Assembly (NCBI RefSeq): GCF_014131695.1
Contig: NZ_CP036346.1
Coordinates: 1,674,001-1,738,000, forward strand
Reading direction: 5' to 3'
Source: Thomasclavelia ramosa DSM 1402
Lineage (GTDB): Bacteria > Bacillota_I > Bacilli_A > Erysipelotrichales > Coprobacillaceae
DNA length: 64,000 nt
Part shown: positions 10,185 to 53,740 of the stretch, piece after piece
Numbering within the stretch: position 1 is the first letter of the stretch
Layout: every line of letters starts with the position of its first letter
Notes under the pieces: generated by a model
What the model saw: the letters and a program-made list of their open reading frames with translations, nothing else
Database searches by the model: none
Told to the model about the DNA's origin: nothing
Made by a program: the position numbers and the translations under genes

Positions 10185-12041
10185 CTATGACAACTCCATT
10201 TTTCCAGTATACAATTGATAATATCTTCCTTTTTGATTAATTAATTCATCATGATTCCCACGTTCTATGATTTCCCCATGATCGAGTACCATAATTGCTT
10301 TTGAATTACGAACTGTAGAAAGACGATGTGCAATTACAAAAACGGTACGATCTTTCATTAAACTATCCATCCCTTTTTCAATCAATTTTTCAGTATGAGT
10401 ATCAATAGAACTTGTAGCCTCATCCAAAATTAAAACTGGGGGATTAGCAATTGCTGCACGAGCGATAGCTAATAGCTGACGTTGTCCTTGTGATAAGTTA
10501 GAACCATCACCAGTTAACATTGTTTGATAGCCTTGCGGAAGTCGCCGAATAAATGAATCTGCATTTGCTAGTTTAGCTGCTGCCACCACTTCTTCATCAC
10601 TAGCATCTAATTTACCGTAACGTATATTATCTTCAATCGTTCCTGTAAATAAATGAGTGTCTTGCAAAACCATTGATAACGATTGTCGCAATGCTGCTTT
10701 TTTTATTAATTTAATATCAATTCCATCGTATGTTATACTGCCAGAATCTAATTCATAAAAACGATTAATCAAATTAGTAATAGTTGTTTTCCCAGCTCCT
10801 GTAGAGCCCACAAATGCAATTTTTTGACCTGGTTTTGCATATAAGTTTAAATTTTTTAAAATAGGATGGTTGGAGACATAACTAAAACAAACATCATGGA
10901 AGCGAACATCACCTTTTAACAAAACCAGTTCTACATCACCATTAGAACGGGGATGACGCCAAGCCCAAAGTCCAGTATTTTCATGACACTCAACTAGCTT
11001 ACCATATTCATTGCGAACATTTGTTAAAGTGACATTTCCTTCATCTATTTCAACCTTTTCATCCATAATTTCAAAAATACGTTCTGCACCTGACATTGCT
11101 GCCAAAATAAAATTCATTTGTTGGGAAAATTGATTTACTGGCATCGCAGTTTGTCGAACAAAAACCAAATATGATGATAAACTTCCTAAATCCATAATCC
11201 CATAAATTGCCATAAACCCGCCTATTACAGCAGATAATGCATAATTCAAATATGAAATACTGACAACTGTTGGTATCATAGTTCCTGAATAAGTAACTGC
11301 TTTCGTAGCTGCTTGTCGTAAAGCTTGATTTCTTTTTTCAAACTCGGCAAAGTTCACCTGTTCATGATTGAAAACTTTAACTACTTTACTTCCTTCGACC
11401 ATTTCTTCAATAAAACCATTTAAACTTCCCATATATTTTTGTTGTTGATTAAAATACTGCTTACTCTTTTTACTACTATAACGAATAAAAATAAACATCA
11501 TTACCATTGAAGCAATTACAATGATTGATAGATAAGGATTTAAAATAATAATCATCGTAATTGTTCCTACAATCATTATAAAACTTTGAATCAACATTGC
11601 AAAACTATTATTTAAAGCTTCTAAAATTGTATCAATATCACTAGTAAATCGACTCATCAACTCACCATGAGTATGCTGATCAAAAAAACTAAGCGGTAAG
11701 TTTTGTATCTTATCAAATAAATCTTCACGAATTTCTTTAACGATTTCTTGAGCAGTTTTTACCATTAATTGATTATATAGATGACAAGCCCCGACACCAG
11801 TTAAATACATAATTGCCATCGTTATTATTGCTTGTAATAGTCCAGCATTATTACCTGGTAGAATGTAATCGTTAATAACCGGTTTTAATAAATAAGTACC
11901 TAAAATATTTGCACCTGCACTAATTAATACTAAAATAGCAATGATTATGAGTGTTCCTATATGTCGAGTTAAATAACTAGCCATTGCTTTTAAAGTTTTC
12001 TTTAAATTTTTAGGGCGTGGAGTTCCGTTTATTCTAGCCAT
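10185..12041 (-). CDS. ABC exporter half-transporter, second subunit
   Basis: 618-residue exporter half-transporter: six-helix type I exporter membrane domain (about 30-330) followed by an ATPase domain. Visible are Walker A GSTGAGKT, Q-loop region VLQDTHLF, signature LSQGQRQ, Walker B VLILDEATSS and H-loop AHR. An insert of some 30 residues with NTGLWAWRHPRSNGDVE sits between membrane and ATPase domains, as in the YfiC/LmrD type of heterodimer partner. Its ATG follows the stop of the preceding ABC gene by one base, so the two are co-translated and probably form one heterodimer. The upstream MarR protein likely controls them. Substrate unknown; drug or lipid export is usual. Confidence 0.88.
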   Translation of the reverse strand: MARINGTPRPKNLKKTLKAMASYLTRHIGTLIIIAILVLISAGANILGTYLLKPVINDYILPGNNAGLLQAIITMAIMYLTGVGACHLYNQLMVKTAQEIVKEIREDLFDKIQNLPLSFFDQHTHGELMSRFTSDIDTILEALNNSFAMLIQSFIMIVGTITMIIILNPYLSIIVIASMVMMFIFIRYSSKKSKQYFNQQQKYMGSLNGFIEEMVEGSKVVKVFNHEQVNFAEFEKRNQALRQAATKAVTYSGTMIPTVVSISYLNYALSAVIGGFMAIYGIMDLGSLSSYLVFVRQTAMPVNQFSQQMNFILAAMSGAERIFEIMDEKVEIDEGNVTLTNVRNEYGKLVECHENTGLWAWRHPRSNGDVELVLLKGDVRFHDVCFSYVSNHPILKNLNLYAKPGQKIAFVGSTGAGKTTITNLINRFYELDSGSITYDGIDIKLIKKAALRQSLSMVLQDTHLFTGTIEDNIRYGKLDASDEEVVAAAKLANADSFIRRLPQGYQTMLTGDGSNLSQGQRQLLAIARAAIANPPVLILDEATSSIDTHTEKLIEKGMDSLMKDRTVFVIAHRLSTVRNSKAIMVLDHGEIIERGNHDELINQKGRYYQLYTGKMELS

Positions 12042-12042
12042 A

Positions 12043-13761
12043 TTATTTATCTCCTTCTTGAATTTTACATAAATCTTGATAGATATGATTACGATTTGCT
12101 AATTCTTCAGGTGTTCCTATATCATCAATTTTACCATCAGTTAAAATAACAATTTTATCTGCATGGGCAAGTGATGATAATCGCTGTGAAATAATAATTT
12201 TAGTTGTCTTAGGCAAATAGTATGCTAATCCATCTGTTAGTTTTCGTTCAGTTGCTGTATCTAATGCACTGGTAGAATCGTCAAGAATTAAAATTTTTGG
12301 TTTCTTTAATAATGCACGTGCAATACATAACCTTTGTTTTTGCCCACCAGAAACATTAACTCCACCTTGCCCTAAATCTGTATTGATTCCCTTAGGCAAT
12401 GCATCGATAAATTCACTGGCACAAGCAATGTCTAAAACTTCATTAAGTTCGTGATCACTAGCATCTGCTTTACCCCATAAAATATTTTCCTTAATCGTTC
12501 CAGAAAATAGAGTGTTTTTTTGTAATACCATAGCAATTTCATCTCGAAGATGTTCGATTCCATATGATTTTATATCATGACCATCGATTAATAAATCCCC
12601 TGCTGTAATATCATATAATCTAGGAATCAATTGTACTAATGAAGTTTTGGCACTACCTGTTCCTCCGATAATACCAACAGTTTCACCAGGCTCAATTTCC
12701 AAATTTATATTATTTAATACATATTCTTTTGCTTTTAAGTCATATTTAAAAGCAACATTTTTAAATATGATTTTTCCCCTCGTAATCTTTATGTCACTTT
12801 TTTCATCTTTAATATCTATTTCTTCATCAAAAACTTCTTGAATCCGATATGCCGAAGCTAGAGAACGAGTTAACATCAAGAAAACATTTGAAATCATCAT
12901 TAAGGAATTTAAGATTTGCATAATATAGCTTAAAAATCCTGTTAATTCACCTACTTGCATATTTCCAACCTGAATCATCCCACCCCCAAACCATAGAATT
13001 GCAATAATCGTCGAATACATCACAAATTGAAAACACGGCATATTCATAACTGCATAATGGAATGATTTACGTGAAACTTGTTGATAATTCAAATTAACTT
13101 CATTAAATTTAGCTTGTTCGTAATCTTTTCTAACATATGACTTTACAACTCTGATCGCAATTAGATTTTCCTGAACTATCGAATTGACAGAGTCTAAAGC
13201 TCTTTGCATTTTCCCATATAAAGGACGAACTTTTGACATAATTATAATTAAGCATGTTGCTAGAACAGGAATAGCTATTAAAAAAACAACAGCTAATTTA
13301 GCATTAATTAGTATTGCCATAGTTAGTGCAGTTAACATCATAAAAGGTGCTCTAACTAACGGACGAATCCCATTACAAATAGCGTTTTGTAAAATAGTAA
13401 CATCACTTGTAAGTCGAGTAACTAACGATGAAGTACTAAAATGATCTGTATTTTTAAACGAAAATTCTTGAATCTTTTGATATTGTGCTTTTCGCAATTC
13501 ATAGCCAAACCCCTGTCCTGCTTTGGCAGCAGTCTTTGCATACAATAAGCCTAAACCAAGCGACAAAAGCGCACATATAATCATTAATCCCCCTTTGATC
13601 AGAATATAATTTCTATCTTTATTTGCTACACCGATATCAATAATATCAGCCATTATCAAAGGAATAATCAACTCAAAAAGAGTTTCTAAAATAACAAACA
13701 CTGCACTTAAATAAAGATATTTTTTATAGTTTTTAAAATAGCCAAAAAATTGTTTGAACAT
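12043..13761 (-). CDS. ABC exporter half-transporter, first subunit
   Basis: 572-residue half-transporter with N-terminal exporter membrane domain and C-terminal ATPase. Walker A reads GGTGSAKTS, with Ala where Gly precedes Lys in most proteins. Signature is VSGGQKQ and Walker B ILILDDSTSALD has Asp where the catalytic Glu normally stands. The H-loop histidine is replaced (SQRLSSL). Such a degenerate composite site is typical of one subunit of heterodimeric exporters, with the partner at 10185-12041 supplying the intact Glu and His. It begins one base after the MarR gene stop, with GGAGG ribosome site. Confidence 0.88.
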   Translation of the reverse strand: MFKQFFGYFKNYKKYLYLSAVFVILETLFELIIPLIMADIIDIGVANKDRNYILIKGGLMIICALLSLGLGLLYAKTAAKAGQGFGYELRKAQYQKIQEFSFKNTDHFSTSSLVTRLTSDVTILQNAICNGIRPLVRAPFMMLTALTMAILINAKLAVVFLIAIPVLATCLIIIMSKVRPLYGKMQRALDSVNSIVQENLIAIRVVKSYVRKDYEQAKFNEVNLNYQQVSRKSFHYAVMNMPCFQFVMYSTIIAILWFGGGMIQVGNMQVGELTGFLSYIMQILNSLMMISNVFLMLTRSLASAYRIQEVFDEEIDIKDEKSDIKITRGKIIFKNVAFKYDLKAKEYVLNNINLEIEPGETVGIIGGTGSAKTSLVQLIPRLYDITAGDLLIDGHDIKSYGIEHLRDEIAMVLQKNTLFSGTIKENILWGKADASDHELNEVLDIACASEFIDALPKGINTDLGQGGVNVSGGQKQRLCIARALLKKPKILILDDSTSALDTATERKLTDGLAYYLPKTTKIIISQRLSSLAHADKIVILTDGKIDDIGTPEELANRNHIYQDLCKIQEGDK

Positions 13762-13762
13762 C

Positions 13763-14188
13763 TTATTCCTCCTTTAACAAGGCGTCATAAAGGCGCTCTA
13801 AGTAATTAATAAATTGTTTTCTTTCTTCCTTGCTAAAATCTCTCAAGGTAATATCTTCACGCTCATCTAGATATGCTTGCCATTTAAGAAAAGTGATTTT
13901 TCCTAATTCGGTAAGTTGAATATATACATTTCTCTTATTTTCCTCACTATAATTCCGTTTAATAAAACCATTACTTTCTAATTTGTTTAGCATAATTGAA
14001 ACTGTAGCAGGCTCAATATCACAACCTTTAGTAATATCTTTTTGTAAACATTCTCTTTTCTGTTCATACAAATATCGTAAAACCTTTGGCTGTCCTGGTG
14101 CTAAATTCAGTTCTTTTAAAAAAGGAATATTCTTTTTCCTTTGTGTATGCGCTGTTTTAAATAATAAATAATATAATGAATTAGCCAT
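13763..14188 (-). CDS. MarR family repressor of ABC operon 1
   Basis: 141-residue winged-helix regulator. The start at ATG 14188 is chosen because GGAGG lies five bases upstream; a longer reading frame to 14251 would run through the promoter and operators. The winged helix includes DITKGCDIEPATVSIMLNKLESNGFI (split here by its helices) and a wing rich in Lys/Arg and Asn. First gene of a tight three-gene operon (gaps of one base) with two ABC half-transporters, the usual arrangement for a repressor of its own exporter. Two RTTAG-N4-CTAAY palindromes lie in the promoter. Confidence 0.88.
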   Translation of the reverse strand: MANSLYYLLFKTAHTQRKKNIPFLKELNLAPGQPKVLRYLYEQKRECLQKDITKGCDIEPATVSIMLNKLESNGFIKRNYSEENKRNVYIQLTELGKITFLKWQAYLDEREDITLRDFSKEERKQFINYLERLYDALLKEE

Positions 14189-14201
14189 CTTTCCTCCTAT
14201 T

Positions 14202-14251
14202 ATTAGTATCCTAACTATTAGTATACTAATCTTATTAATAAAGTCTGTCAA
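14202..14251 (-). promoter_or_regulatory. MarR operon 1 promoter with two operators
   Basis: On the minus strand TTGACA (14251-14246) is followed after 17 bases by TAGTAT (14228-14223) as a likely -10. Two palindromes overlap and follow it: ATTAG-TATA-CTAAT (14217-14230, symmetric) and ATTAG-TATC-CTAAC (14202-14215). The same motif recurs before the second MarR operon at 61027-61081. Confidence 0.75.
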
Positions 14252-14267
14252 GGTATTTACTAAAATT

Positions 14268-14294
14268 AAAAACCGGCTTCTATTTAGAGCCGGT
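14268..14294 (-). terminator. Terminator of the fusion GTPase/small gene operon
   Basis: ACCGGCT/AGCCGGT stem (14272-14278 with 14288-14294) and a T-run on the minus strand at 14268-14272. The stop codon of the small gene (14280-14282) is inside the loop. Confidence 0.85.
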
Positions 14295-14663
14295 CATTTT
14301 ATATATTTTACTTAGTGTATTATATGCTGTTTTAATCGTACCATCGTATTCCTCAGCAAAAACAATAGTCATTTCCTCTTTTAAAATAATAGCTAAACAA
14401 TATTTTAATTTACGATTCAATCGTCTATCTAATAACGCCATTCGTCCAAATAATAAAACATTTACAGGATCCAGCTGTTTTTTTAATTCCTCGATTTCAC
14501 CATATTTCACTTCAATAATATCGTTATAAGAAAACTTTCTACTTTTGAAGATACCATCAACTGAAAAGCTATTTTCTTTAAGATTTAAGGTATAAATAGC
14601 ACGCTTTTGATATTCAGCAATACCACCAATATAATTAAGATTATATTTAAATGTTTTTTTCAT
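14280..14663 (-). CDS. Unknown 127-residue protein, possible PH-like fold
   Basis: I do not recognise this family. From ATG 14663 (AGGAG seven bases upstream) it is a soluble basic protein with alternating beta-type stretches (IYTLNLKENSFSVDG, KFSYNDIIEVKYG) and a C-terminal amphipathic helix, the pattern of small bacterial PH-like domains. No signal peptide or membrane helix. It lies ten bases after the GTPase-nuclease fusion gene and shares its terminator, so the two are co-transcribed. Confidence 0.65.
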   Translation of the reverse strand: MKKTFKYNLNYIGGIAEYQKRAIYTLNLKENSFSVDGIFKSRKFSYNDIIEVKYGEIEELKKQLDPVNVLLFGRMALLDRRLNRKLKYCLAIILKEEMTIVFAEEYDGTIKTAYNTLSKIYKMTGSK

Positions 14664-14673
14664 TTTCAAACTC

Positions 14674-17235
14674 CTAATCCTGATTAAAATTCTTAAGTTC
14701 TTCTAATAAATAATTATGACTCTTAGGTTGTTTACGTCGGAATTCTTCTAATTTTTCTTGATCAAGTTGTGCTACTTCTAATCGAAGTTCGCGAGAAGAT
14801 ATTCTTTTCCCACCTTGCCCTAATACGATTAATTGTTCTAACGCATCAGATGTGGCCACTGTAATATTGTATTTACTTGCCAACTCATGAGTTGCCCGCT
14901 CAATATACATATCAGCAGTTTGTGCTTCTTTAGTATATGCGATATAAATATTATGATATTTAGTAGTTGAACCAATATTATCTTTAACCTTATATGCATC
15001 AAATACTAAAATCAAAATACATTTTTTGTAACCTTGATAGTTGCACATAATATCAATTAATCGCATTCTAGCTGCGTCTAAATTATCTTTTGCTAACTCT
15101 TTTAATTCTGGCCAGGCATGAATAACATTATAGCCATCAACTAATAAACATTCTGGAATGTATTTATAACTTGACTCATTAAATATTTTTTTAGTTACTT
15201 GATGTTCGCCAGATCTTTGTTTAACTGGTCCATAAGTGCGTGTGAAAATATTTTCTAACTCGTCATCAATATTATCAAATTTAGATTTATCCTGAATATT
15301 ATTAGCGGTCTTCTTTATTTTTTTAAAAACAAATGGTATGTGCATATGTTGGGCAACTTGATCCCACCTTACATTATAACCAGCACCATGACTGCAAAAT
15401 ACTGATCCTGTTGGATTTTCTACATCTGCCTCACTATCATAGTTGAATGATTTAATTACTTCAGCCTGATTTTGACATGGGCGATAATCACTTAACTGAC
15501 AAATTAGGCGCCCTTTTCCTTTAGTATATCTAACAACTTCACTTTGATAATTTTGCATTTTACTGACTGGTGCACTTCCGGTAATAACAGCAATGTCAGT
15601 TTGATTTTCCGGTAATTTAAAGTCCCCTGCCATTGCCTCAATATCATAAATCGCTCGACTCAGATATTCAATCGGTAATTCAAGTGAAAAATCAAAATAC
15701 GGCTCTAGTAAAACCGATTTTGCTGTTTTCAAGCCTTGACGTATCGCCCGATATGTTGCCTCTCTAAAATCACCGCCTTCAGTATGCTTTAAATGTGCTT
15801 TTCCAGCCACTAAAGTTATTTTCATATCTGTGATTGGCGAGCCCGTAAGTACTCCCAAATGCTCTTTTTCTTGTAAATGCGACAAAATTAATCGTTGATA
15901 GTTATTCGCTAGAAGATATTCTTGACAATTTGTATCGAATTTTAATCCCGACCCTGGTTTCCCGGGTTCTAAAAGTAAATGTACTTCAGCATAATGACGT
16001 AATGGTTCAAAATGTCCTACCCCTTCAACAGTTTCTTCAATCGTCTCTTTATAAATAATTCTTCCATAATCAAAATCAACTTCAACTTTAAACCGCTCTT
16101 GGATTATATTTTTAAGCACCTCAATTTGAATTTCACCCATTAATTGAACATGAATTTCTTTGGTTCTAACGTTATAATTGATATGTAGCTGAGGATCTTC
16201 TTGTGCTAATAAATTTAACTTTTTTAACACTTGATGTTGATCACAATCAGGAGGCAATTTAATTTGATAATCCATGTATGGTGACAACAATGGCTGAGTC
16301 GTATTATCTTCTATACCTAATCCCTGACCAGCAACTATACTTTTAAGCCCTTTAATCGCACAAATATCCCCAGCCATCACTTCATCAGTTAAATGATACT
16401 TATTCCCAGAATAAATACGAATTTGATCAACTTTTTCATCATTTAAAAGTTGCGTTTTCACTTTTAAACTACCGCCAGTAATTTTTAAATGTGTCAATTT
16501 GTTTCCTTGTTCGTCATGACTTATTTTAAAAACTCGCGCTCCAAAAGATTCAGAATAATCCTTATTCTTTATATAATTAGTAAATTCATTAAAAAAATTA
16601 TCAATCCGTTCCATTTTTAACGCAGAGCCAAAAAAACACGGAAATAATTGGCATCTAGCAATTTCATTAATTAACATCTCTTTGTTTAAGGTATTATATT
16701 CTAGATAATAATTCAATAAATCTTCGCTATTTAAAGCAACACTTTCATAAAATTCATCATTCAAATTACTAAAATCAAAACAATGTTCATCTAGTCGTTC
16801 TTTTAAATTCTGCATTAATTCAGATTGCTCATAACGACTAACATCCATTTTATTAATAAAAATAAAGGTTGGTATTTTATAATATCTCAATAAATTCCAA
16901 ATTGTTTCACTATGACCTTGGACACCGTCTATCCCACTGATTACCAAAATAGCATAATCGAGCACTTGTAGCGTACGTTCCATTTCTGTCGAAAAATCAA
17001 TGTGACCTGGCGTATCAATCAAAGTAATTTGGCTATCATGCCAATTTATTATTGCCTGCTTAGAAAAAATTGTAATCCCTCGATTTCTCTCTTGAAAATC
17101 ATAATCTAAAAAAGTATCCCGATGATCAACTCGACCTAATTTTCGTGTTGTTCCTGTTAAATATAATATACTCTCAGTTAATGTTGTTTTTCCTGCATCA
17201 ACATGTGCAAGAATTCCTAATACTATCTTTTTCAT
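14674..17235 (-). CDS. Tet(M)-like ribosomal GTPase fused to YacP/Rae1-type NYN nuclease
   Basis: 853-residue two-part protein. Residues 1 to about 650 follow EF-G-like ribosomal protection proteins: G1 AHVDAGKT (10-17), RGIT near 52-55, DTPGH (74-78), NKMD (128-131), then domains II to V including the region VVRYTKGKGRLICQLSDY. Residues about 695-845 match the YacP/Rae1 NYN family: LLVDGYN with Asp700, VFDAYKVK with Asp746, TKEAQTADMYIE with Asp775 and ATSDALEQ with Asp797, so the acidic nuclease centre is intact. B. subtilis Rae1 cuts mRNA in the ribosomal A site, and Tet(M) binds next to that site. I infer a ribosome-delivered mRNase or rescue factor. Tetracycline resistance is not shown. 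Tet(M) itself is 639 residues and lacks this tail. Confidence 0.85.
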   Translation of the reverse strand: MKKIVLGILAHVDAGKTTLTESILYLTGTTRKLGRVDHRDTFLDYDFQERNRGITIFSKQAIINWHDSQITLIDTPGHIDFSTEMERTLQVLDYAILVISGIDGVQGHSETIWNLLRYYKIPTFIFINKMDVSRYEQSELMQNLKERLDEHCFDFSNLNDEFYESVALNSEDLLNYYLEYNTLNKEMLINEIARCQLFPCFFGSALKMERIDNFFNEFTNYIKNKDYSESFGARVFKISHDEQGNKLTHLKITGGSLKVKTQLLNDEKVDQIRIYSGNKYHLTDEVMAGDICAIKGLKSIVAGQGLGIEDNTTQPLLSPYMDYQIKLPPDCDQHQVLKKLNLLAQEDPQLHINYNVRTKEIHVQLMGEIQIEVLKNIIQERFKVEVDFDYGRIIYKETIEETVEGVGHFEPLRHYAEVHLLLEPGKPGSGLKFDTNCQEYLLANNYQRLILSHLQEKEHLGVLTGSPITDMKITLVAGKAHLKHTEGGDFREATYRAIRQGLKTAKSVLLEPYFDFSLELPIEYLSRAIYDIEAMAGDFKLPENQTDIAVITGSAPVSKMQNYQSEVVRYTKGKGRLICQLSDYRPCQNQAEVIKSFNYDSEADVENPTGSVFCSHGAGYNVRWDQVAQHMHIPFVFKKIKKTANNIQDKSKFDNIDDELENIFTRTYGPVKQRSGEHQVTKKIFNESSYKYIPECLLVDGYNVIHAWPELKELAKDNLDAARMRLIDIMCNYQGYKKCILILVFDAYKVKDNIGSTTKYHNIYIAYTKEAQTADMYIERATHELASKYNITVATSDALEQLIVLGQGGKRISSRELRLEVAQLDQEKLEEFRRKQPKSHNYLLEELKNFNQD

Positions 17236-17367
17236 TTATATCATCCTACTTATTTTCTAATAATATAATTATAAAGAATATTGCTATAATTACAATTGAT
17301 ATTACCAATTTATCTAATTCAGCTTAAAAATATGCTTAATTCAACTAAAATTATTTTGAATTGTTGT

Positions 17368-17396
17368 AAAAGCATGAATCAATGACTCATGCTTTT
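17368..17396 (-). terminator. Terminator of the DUF89 gene
   Basis: AAAAGCATGA and TCATGCTTTT arms (17368-17377, 17387-17396) with a 9-base loop; the 3' arm on the minus strand ends in TTTT. The stem overlaps the last codons of the DUF89 gene. Confidence 0.7.
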
Positions 17397-53400: not shown

Positions 53401-53740
53401 TGTGATAAATCTTTTTCTATCGATGGTATCATTACTGTTTTTAAAGTTTACTGGACTTCATCGTCCACAAGGCCTCCCGAGGTAAGGCATACATCCTTTT
53501 TATCTTCACAGGTTTTTGATTTACTGTCTTGGTTTTACGTTTACCTTTTGGACTTGGTTTGTTCTGCAACCTTGTCCACCATTCAGCCTCATCAAATTTC
53601 TTTTCGTAACCTCGAAGATTTTTCCACACCACTTCCTCCGCCCATAGCATCACTACTAACGGCTTGTGGTTCACTACTCTTGGCGGTAAATACCCGTGGT
53701 TGGACTTTCACCAGCTAGATGTATGCCATGCTCGACACAC
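53400..53740 (-). mobile_element. 5' fragment of a group II intron
   Basis: The minus strand from 53740 starts GTGTGTCGAGCATGGC and has CTGGTGAAAGTCC some 20 bases on, the hallmark of the 5' end and first domain of bacterial group II introns. It is much richer in G+C than its surroundings. No reverse transcriptase or domain V is found, so it is a truncated, dead copy. It starts two bases after the T-run of the terminator of the DUF368 gene, the insertion habit of class IIC introns. The left limit is uncertain. Confidence 0.65.

What the first reader, a model, noticed from the sequence alone, without database searches (positions are those of the whole stretch)
14674..17235. Ribosomal-protection GTPase fused to a Rae1/YacP nuclease
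One protein joins a Tet(M)-like EF-G paralogue, which docks beside the ribosomal A site, to an NYN domain of the YacP/Rae1 family, an endoribonuclease that cuts mRNA in the A site in B. subtilis. The GTPase motifs and the nuclease aspartates (700, 746, 775, 797) are all intact. A GTP-driven enzyme that delivers an mRNase to stalled ribosomes would be a new kind of rescue or translation-control system. The co-transcribed unknown protein at 14280-14663 may be part of it.
Basis: partly seen in the sequence, partly recalled or inferred. Interest (0 to 1): 0.85.

Follow-up and report, generated by a model that had tools for sequence, protein, structure and literature searches.

The report
Ribosome-docking GTPase fused to mRNA-cutting nuclease
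A gut bacterium and many relatives have welded Rae1, the nuclease that cuts mRNA inside stalled ribosomes, onto a GTPase of the kind that lands next to the ribosome's decoding site, and have lost the separate nuclease gene, which suggests a GTP-controlled mRNA-cutting machine that nobody has tested.

Summary
ORF 14674-17235 (minus strand, 853 aa) is an EF-G/Tet-type GTPase (1-590), a conserved 611-632 motif, a flexible linker, and a YacP/Rae1 NYN nuclease (697-849, E 3.5e-49). The four named Asp equal B. subtilis Rae1 D7/D53/D81/D104 and are invariant in 94 fused and 20 stand-alone copies. The fusion itself is not new: Atkinson 2015 (PMC4342817) reported it in ten clostridial species and guessed at RNase-based antibiotic resistance. 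My evidence points elsewhere. The GTPase forms its own clade, scores about half the curated cut-off for tetracycline-protection proteins, and has a different domain IV tip. It is mostly chromosomal, with no conserved neighbours. The fusion has replaced free Rae1: it is the only YacP domain in this genome, and 15 of 15 readable cysS-mrnC-rlmB-[rae1]-sigH loci of fusion carriers lack rae1. Among 398 Firmicutes, 1 of 23 fusion carriers keeps free Rae1, against about 182 of 375 others (p = 1e-5, not corrected for ancestry). Best reading: this is the cell's Rae1, brought to the ribosome by a GTPase. That step and A-site cutting remain inferred. The small downstream gene encodes a genus-specific PH-like protein.

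The parts
14674..17235 (-). Fusion gene, 853 aa: translational GTPase plus Rae1/YacP NYN nuclease
   Evidence: ORF; Pfam; 80 full-length homologues
16567..17226 (-). G domain, residues 4-223 (HVDAGKT, DTPGH, NKMD intact)
   Evidence: PF00009 E=1.9e-49; invariant columns
16327..16542 (-). Domain II, residues 232-303
   Evidence: PF22042 EF-G_D2
16072..16281 (-). Domain III, residues 319-388
   Evidence: PF14492
15718..16065 (-). Domain IV, residues 391-506, the part that enters the A site in EF-G and Tet(M)
   Evidence: PF03764 E=4.8e-19
15763..15795 (-). Domain IV tip loop, residues 481-491 HLKHTEGGDFR: subfamily-specific, unlike Tet(M) YSPVSTPADFR and unlike EF-G YHDVDSSEMAF
   Evidence: alignments
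15466..15714 (-). Domain V, residues 508-590
   Evidence: PF00679
15340..15405 (-). Conserved C-terminal motif of the GTPase subfamily, residues 611-632 (SVFCSHGAGYNVRWDQVAQHMH), also in relatives without the nuclease
15151..15339 (-). Flexible linker, residues 633-695, with one conserved helix near 656-668
   Evidence: pLDDT under 50 at 641-656 and 672-691; E659 and I663 at least 90% conserved
14689..15147 (-). NYN_YacP (Rae1) nuclease domain, residues 697-849; Asp 700, 746, 775, 797
   Evidence: PF05991 E=3.5e-49; the only YacP domain in the genome; Asp invariance
14280..14663 (-). Downstream co-transcribed gene, PH-like fold, genus-specific (ATG at 14663; a TTG at 14669 is also possible)
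   Evidence: +1 neighbour in 5 of 5 Thomasclavelia-type relatives; model pLDDT 86; PH/PTB-type matches; no Pfam or NCBIfam hit
17268..17295 (-). Probable promoter TTGTAA-16-TATAAT, about 30 nt before the start codon
   Evidence: consensus match whose -10 TATAAT and most of whose -35 are conserved in six relatives
17369..17395 (-). Hairpin plus T run that probably ends the upstream phosphatase unit
   Evidence: read from sequence; a similar hairpin in L008 and L009
14268..14294 (-). Intrinsic terminator at the end of the PH-like gene, closing the two-gene unit
   Evidence: stem found; sequence with T run

Best explanation
The protein is this organism's Rae1, the nuclease that cuts mRNA in the A site of paused ribosomes, now carried on a translational GTPase. 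Proposed action: (1) the GTP-bound EF-G-like body binds the factor site of a ribosome whose A site is free or badly occupied, i.e. a paused one; (2) domain IV, with its own conserved HTxGGDF tip, enters the decoding site, senses or clears it, and GTP is hydrolysed; (3) as domain IV withdraws, the nuclease on its roughly 60-residue tether enters the emptied A site and cuts the mRNA, so that the mRNA decays and the ribosome can be rescued. Shown here: architecture, intact catalytic residues of both parts, replacement of the free Rae1 gene by the fusion, a GTPase distinct from tetracycline-protection proteins, and no conserved partner genes. Inferred from family knowledge: ribosome binding, GTP hydrolysis, mRNA as substrate. 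Pure inference: the order of events and that GTP gates cutting.
For: The only YacP domain in a complete single-contig genome is the fused one. The ancestral slot cysS-mrnC-rlmB-[rae1]-sigH is preserved but lacks rae1 in this genome (16 nt between rlmB and the sigma gene) and in 14 of 14 other readable loci of fusion carriers, while it is filled in C. carboxidivorans and one non-carrier. In 398 Firmicutes, 1 of 23 fusion carriers also has free Rae1, against about 182 of 375 others (p=1.3e-5) and 4 of 6 carriers of the same GTPase without nuclease (p=0.003). In the organism's own phylum no YacP domain above the cut-off stands free: 24 of 26 lie in long frames, one runs off a contig end, one lies next to a split GTPase frame. 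Catalytic Asp are 100% kept. A single capture followed by long retention fits the nuclease tree, where fused and free forms separate at 98/92. Rae1 is described as an A-site endonuclease acting on paused ribosomes (PMC12320835; PMC10100781; PMC6613710). The GTPase model matches ribosome-bound EF-G and Tet(M) over residues 1-600/626.
Against: No experiment. If domain IV fills the A site as in EF-G and Tet(M), the nuclease cannot be there at the same moment, so a sequential mechanism has to be assumed. The same GTPase exists without a nuclease, in 4 of 6 cases in a genome with free Rae1 and in two genomes of the own phylum without any, so the GTPase has some role of its own. Four Clostridium genomes keep both fused and free forms, so the two are not always interchangeable. 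Y748 is invariant in fused copies where free Rae1 mostly has His, so the specificity may have shifted. The counts are not corrected for shared ancestry.
Confidence: 0.5

Rival explanations
1. The two parts work separately on the ribosome and are only tethered for co-localisation: the GTPase does its own, still unknown job (as in relatives without the nuclease), and Rae1 cuts in the A site as usual without needing GTP.
For: The same GTPase subfamily exists without NYN, sometimes in genomes with a free Rae1 and sometimes without; one branch (L. salivarius) sits inside the fused group and has lost the nuclease while keeping the GTPase. The linker is long and mostly disordered.
Against: The fusion has been kept across several orders, with only one clear loss in the sampled tree, and the linker holds one conserved helix, which suggests that linkage matters.
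Confidence: 0.25
2. It is a tetracycline-resistance ribosomal protection protein that gained an RNase as an extra resistance mechanism (the suggestion of Atkinson 2015).
For: Published suggestion (PMC4342817); NCBI records label related proteins TetM/TetW/TetO/TetS family; overall about 30% identity to Tet(M).
Against: 425 bits against the curated cut-off of 775, whereas real Tet(M) and TetB(P) score 872 and 959. Tet(M), Tet(O), Tet(Q) and TetB(P) form a separate clade with full support. The drug-displacing loop YSPVSTPADF is replaced by HLKHTEGGDF. No leader peptide or attenuator: a promoter about 30 nt from the start codon, whereas a tet(M) locus has an annotated leader peptide. Only two plasmid records hold a near full-length match. 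Replacement of a housekeeping nuclease is not expected of a resistance gene.
Confidence: 0.1
3. The nuclease part acts on ribosomal or transfer RNA (maturation, quality control or stress cutting) rather than on mRNA, with the GTPase guiding it to ribosomes.
For: NYN domains were first predicted to process rRNA or tRNA (Anantharaman and Aravind 2006, as cited in PMC4342817). The ancestral rae1 gene sits next to rlmB and mrnC, which act on 23S rRNA.
Against: The one studied family member cuts mRNA in a translation-dependent way, and all its catalytic positions are kept.
Confidence: 0.1

Closest known systems
Rae1/YacP of Bacillus subtilis (PF05991; PDB 5mq8, 5mq9)
   Same: NYN nuclease fold by sequence, all four Asp and the DGYN, FDA, TAD and TSD motifs; the fusion takes its place in the genome
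   Different: Here fused to a GTPase, in another chromosomal position, and with Tyr748 where free Rae1 mostly has His
Tet-NYN fusion proteins of ten clostridial species (Atkinson 2015, PMC4342817)
   Same: By its description the same architecture, and very likely the same family
   Different: That paper proposed antibiotic resistance, before Rae1's function was known; loss of free Rae1, separation from true Tet proteins, and wide presence in Erysipelotrichales are added here
Tet(M)/Tet(O) ribosomal protection proteins
   Same: Five-domain EF-G-like GTPase of similar length, about 30% identity
   Different: Separate clade, other domain IV tip, extra 611-632 motif, nuclease, no attenuator leader, mostly chromosomal
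EF-G and EF-G paralogues
   Same: Domain order and GTPase motifs
   Different: Lacks the SGGxGQYG and SYHxVDSSEMAF tip loops; the genome has its own EF-G and a further 729-aa paralogue
A-site mRNA cutters RelE and YafQ
   Same: Proposed site of action
   Different: Unrelated proteins, toxins with antitoxins, no GTPase

Membership tests
Rae1/YacP endoribonuclease | Match to PF05991 above the curated cut-off | tested here: met
   167.4 bits against 24.6
Rae1/YacP endoribonuclease | Catalytic Asp (Rae1 D7, D53, D81, D104) | tested here: met
   D700, D746, D775, D797; invariant in 94 fused and 20 free copies
Rae1/YacP endoribonuclease | Encoded alone, between rlmB and sigH (a gene-order feature, not a biochemical one) | tested here: not met
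   Slot empty here and in 14 other carriers
Rae1/YacP endoribonuclease | Translation-dependent cleavage of mRNA in the A site | not testable with these tools
   needs biochemistry
Tetracycline ribosomal protection protein | Curated family cut-off (NF012153, 775 bits) | tested here: not met
   425 bits; Tet(M) 872 and TetB(P) 959 as positive controls
Tetracycline ribosomal protection protein | Domain IV loop with the YSPVSTPADF signature | tested here: not met
   HLKHTEGGDF instead
Tetracycline ribosomal protection protein | Groups with Tet proteins in a tree | tested here: not met
   Tet(M/O/Q) and TetB(P) form their own fully supported clade (quick method)
Tetracycline ribosomal protection protein | Confers tetracycline resistance | not testable with these tools
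   no experiment
EF-G-type translational GTPase | Domains G, II, III, IV, V and intact G motifs | tested here: met
   Pfam hits, invariant motif columns, structural match Z 30-38 to ribosome-bound EF-G and Tet(M)
EF-G-type translational GTPase | Ribosome-dependent GTP hydrolysis | not testable with these tools
   needs biochemistry

The most novel reading that the evidence does not exclude
A GTP-gated A-site mRNase: one protein that uses an EF-G-like cycle to recognise a paused ribosome, clear its A site and hand the emptied site to a tethered nuclease that cuts the mRNA. In Erysipelotrichales and many Clostridia this would be the only form of Rae1.
Probability: 0.4. Interest if true: 0.85.

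Novelty: new variant of a known kind. Interest (0 to 1): 0.63.

Why it matters
How Rae1 finds its target ribosomes is still open; a natural fusion that has replaced the free enzyme says that its partner in these bacteria is a translational GTPase, and it makes that directly testable with one purified protein. If GTP hydrolysis controls the cut, it would be a new way to link ribosome pausing to mRNA decay and rescue in many human gut Firmicutes. It also corrects annotation: several records label these proteins as tetracycline-resistance genes, although they fall far below the curated cut-off and lack the key loop, which would inflate resistance-gene counts from gut genomes.

Tried and rejected
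Conserved operon partner: neighbours within four genes at 80 loci form no common cluster; only the PH-like gene recurs, and only in the same genus. The MarR and two ABC half-transporter genes downstream are a separate unit behind a terminator and are not conserved beside the fusion, so the tempting parallel with Rae1 control of the B. subtilis bmrCD transporter mRNA (title cited in PMC12320835) is not followed. Mobile resistance gene: only two of 1,327 plasmid records with a match cover 80% of the protein. Leader-peptide attenuation: none seen. Obligate pairing of the nuclease-free GTPase with free Rae1: 4 of 6, and 0 of 2 in the own phylum, so not supported. The Rae1 discovery paper (EMBO J 2017), the Rae1 distribution paper (RNA Biol 2018), the 2006 NYN paper and the Tet(O) structure paper are not held; the 2018 paper may mention the fusion. 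The full-length structure comparison covered residues 1-623 only; the nuclease fold rests on sequence.

Full report
What is there. Residues 4-590 carry the five domains of EF-G-type factors and residues 697-849 a YacP-like NYN nuclease; every assignment is above its curated Pfam cut-off. By sequence the nearest solved structures are ribosome-bound Tet(M) for the first part and B. subtilis Rae1 for the second. An AlphaFold model built on 47 homologues (mean pLDDT 81) aligns over residues 1-600/626 with EF-G and Tet(M) on ribosomes (Z 30-38), and shows a mostly disordered linker from about 633 to 695 before the folded nuclease. About 62 residues of linker can span far more than the distance across the factor site, so geometry neither supports nor excludes the A site as target (inference).

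Is it chance or artefact? No. Eighty full-length homologues at 50-75% identity were found in independent genomes, 314 candidates in all.

It has been seen before. Atkinson 2015 (PMC4342817) reports that Tet proteins of ten clostridial species have gained a YacP-like NYN RNase domain and suggests an RNase-based resistance mechanism. No later functional work was found in the held library. Two papers on Rae1 itself could not be read.

The GTPase is not a normal tetracycline-protection protein. It reaches 425 bits in the curated model where 775 are required; real Tet(M) and TetB(P) reach 872 and 959, and nuclease-free sister proteins 381-430. In the tree, Tet(M), Tet(O), Tet(Q) and TetB(P) form one clade with full support, and fused plus nuclease-free sister proteins form another (98; quick method, SH-aLRT only). 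The tip of domain IV, the part that reaches the decoding centre, reads GHFEPLRHYAEV and AHxKHTxGGDFR in nearly all of the subfamily, against YYSPVSTPADFR in Tet proteins and SGGxGQYG plus SYHxVDSSEMAF in EF-G. A motif after domain V (SVFCxHGxGxxVxW) is also shared by fused and nuclease-free members, and in the nuclease-free ones the protein ends just after it. So the nuclease was added to the end of an existing factor. One nuclease-free branch, on Ligilactobacillus salivarius plasmids, sits inside the fused group and is best read as a loss, although its placement has moderate support (89).

The fusion has taken the place of Rae1. This genome has a single YacP domain, the fused one. In Firmicutes with free Rae1 the gene lies between rlmB and sigH (C. 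carboxidivorans). Here that operon is intact except that rlmB is followed after 16 nt by the sigma-factor gene. I fetched the same place from 16 other fusion carriers; in all 14 where both flanks could be read, rae1 was missing. Of 24 genomes chosen for the fusion, 19 have no other YacP domain, four Clostridium genomes keep a free Rae1, and one has a fragment. In one and the same sample of 398 Firmicutes, 23 carry the fusion and 1 of these also has free Rae1; about 182 of the 375 others have free Rae1 (Fisher p = 1.3e-5), as do 4 of 6 carriers of the nuclease-free GTPase (p = 0.003). The figure 182 is the number of genomes above the cut-off minus fused carriers, and the counts are not corrected for shared ancestry. 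In the organism's own phylum no free YacP was found above the cut-off: 24 of 26 are in long fused frames, one runs off a contig end and one lies beside a split GTPase frame. In its own family 38 of 43 genomes have a YacP domain, nearly all in frames of about 850 aa. The nuclease tree separates fused from free forms at 98/92, consistent with a single capture.

Gene context. The gene has its own promoter-like site about 30 nt before the start codon, with the -10 box and most of the -35 box conserved in six relatives, and no leader peptide or attenuator. It is followed by one small gene and then an intrinsic terminator. That gene encodes a 127-aa protein predicted to have a PH-like fold; it follows the fusion in five of five close relatives but nowhere else among 80 loci. 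There is no other conserved neighbour, so the fusion seems to act without a dedicated partner.

How it probably works. Rae1 is described as an endonuclease that attacks mRNA in the A site of paused ribosomes (PMC12320835; PMC10100781; PMC6613710, where loss of Rae1 suppresses a defect caused by lack of EF-P). Factors of the EF-G type bind next to the A site and put domain IV into it. Both cannot occupy the A site at once, so the simplest joint mechanism is sequential: docking, probing or clearing by domain IV, GTP hydrolysis, then entry of the tethered nuclease and cutting. Replacement of free Rae1 supports the view that the fused nuclease does Rae1's job; it does not show that GTP controls it. 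The main rival is that the two parts merely share a tether.

Verdict. Real, widespread, published as an architecture but with its role untested and probably misread as drug resistance. The new evidence here is the loss of free rae1 from its own operon in fusion carriers and the clear separation from tetracycline-protection proteins.

Noticed in passing
window 53491-53659 (-): Group II intron structure (RF02001, 84 bits), the only Rfam match in the window.
   Followed up: no
window 10185-14251 (-): MarR-type regulator and two ABC half-transporters form a separate unit right behind the fusion unit; in B. subtilis a Rae1 target is the mRNA of a two-part multidrug ABC transporter (bmrCD). Not conserved beside the fusion elsewhere, so probably coincidence.
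   Followed up: partly
L094 (NZ_CP062072.1), L105 (NZ_CP143948.1): Members of this subfamily are annotated as TetM/TetW/TetO/TetS tetracycline-resistance proteins; the L. salivarius one scores 381 bits against the curated cut-off of 775. Likely over-annotation of resistance genes.
   Followed up: partly
L112 (G715:C1:1858479-1860362): A 35%-identical relative that branches below the whole subfamily and shares HTxGGDF in the domain IV tip but lacks the C-terminal motif and the nuclease: possibly another uncharacterised EF-G-like branch.
   Followed up: no
L012 (SHOH01000005.1): A fusion in a contig labelled Anaerolineaceae (Chloroflexota), nested among Clostridia: horizontal transfer or a binning error.
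   Followed up: no
L147 (G296:C3:77500-81000): The GTPase (712-aa frame) and the nuclease (160-aa frame) are adjacent but in separate frames: a natural fission or a frameshift.
   Followed up: no
L003 (G000:C1, about 2548163): The organism has a further EF-G paralogue of 729 aa with EF-G-type tip loops and a very long tree branch.
   Followed up: no
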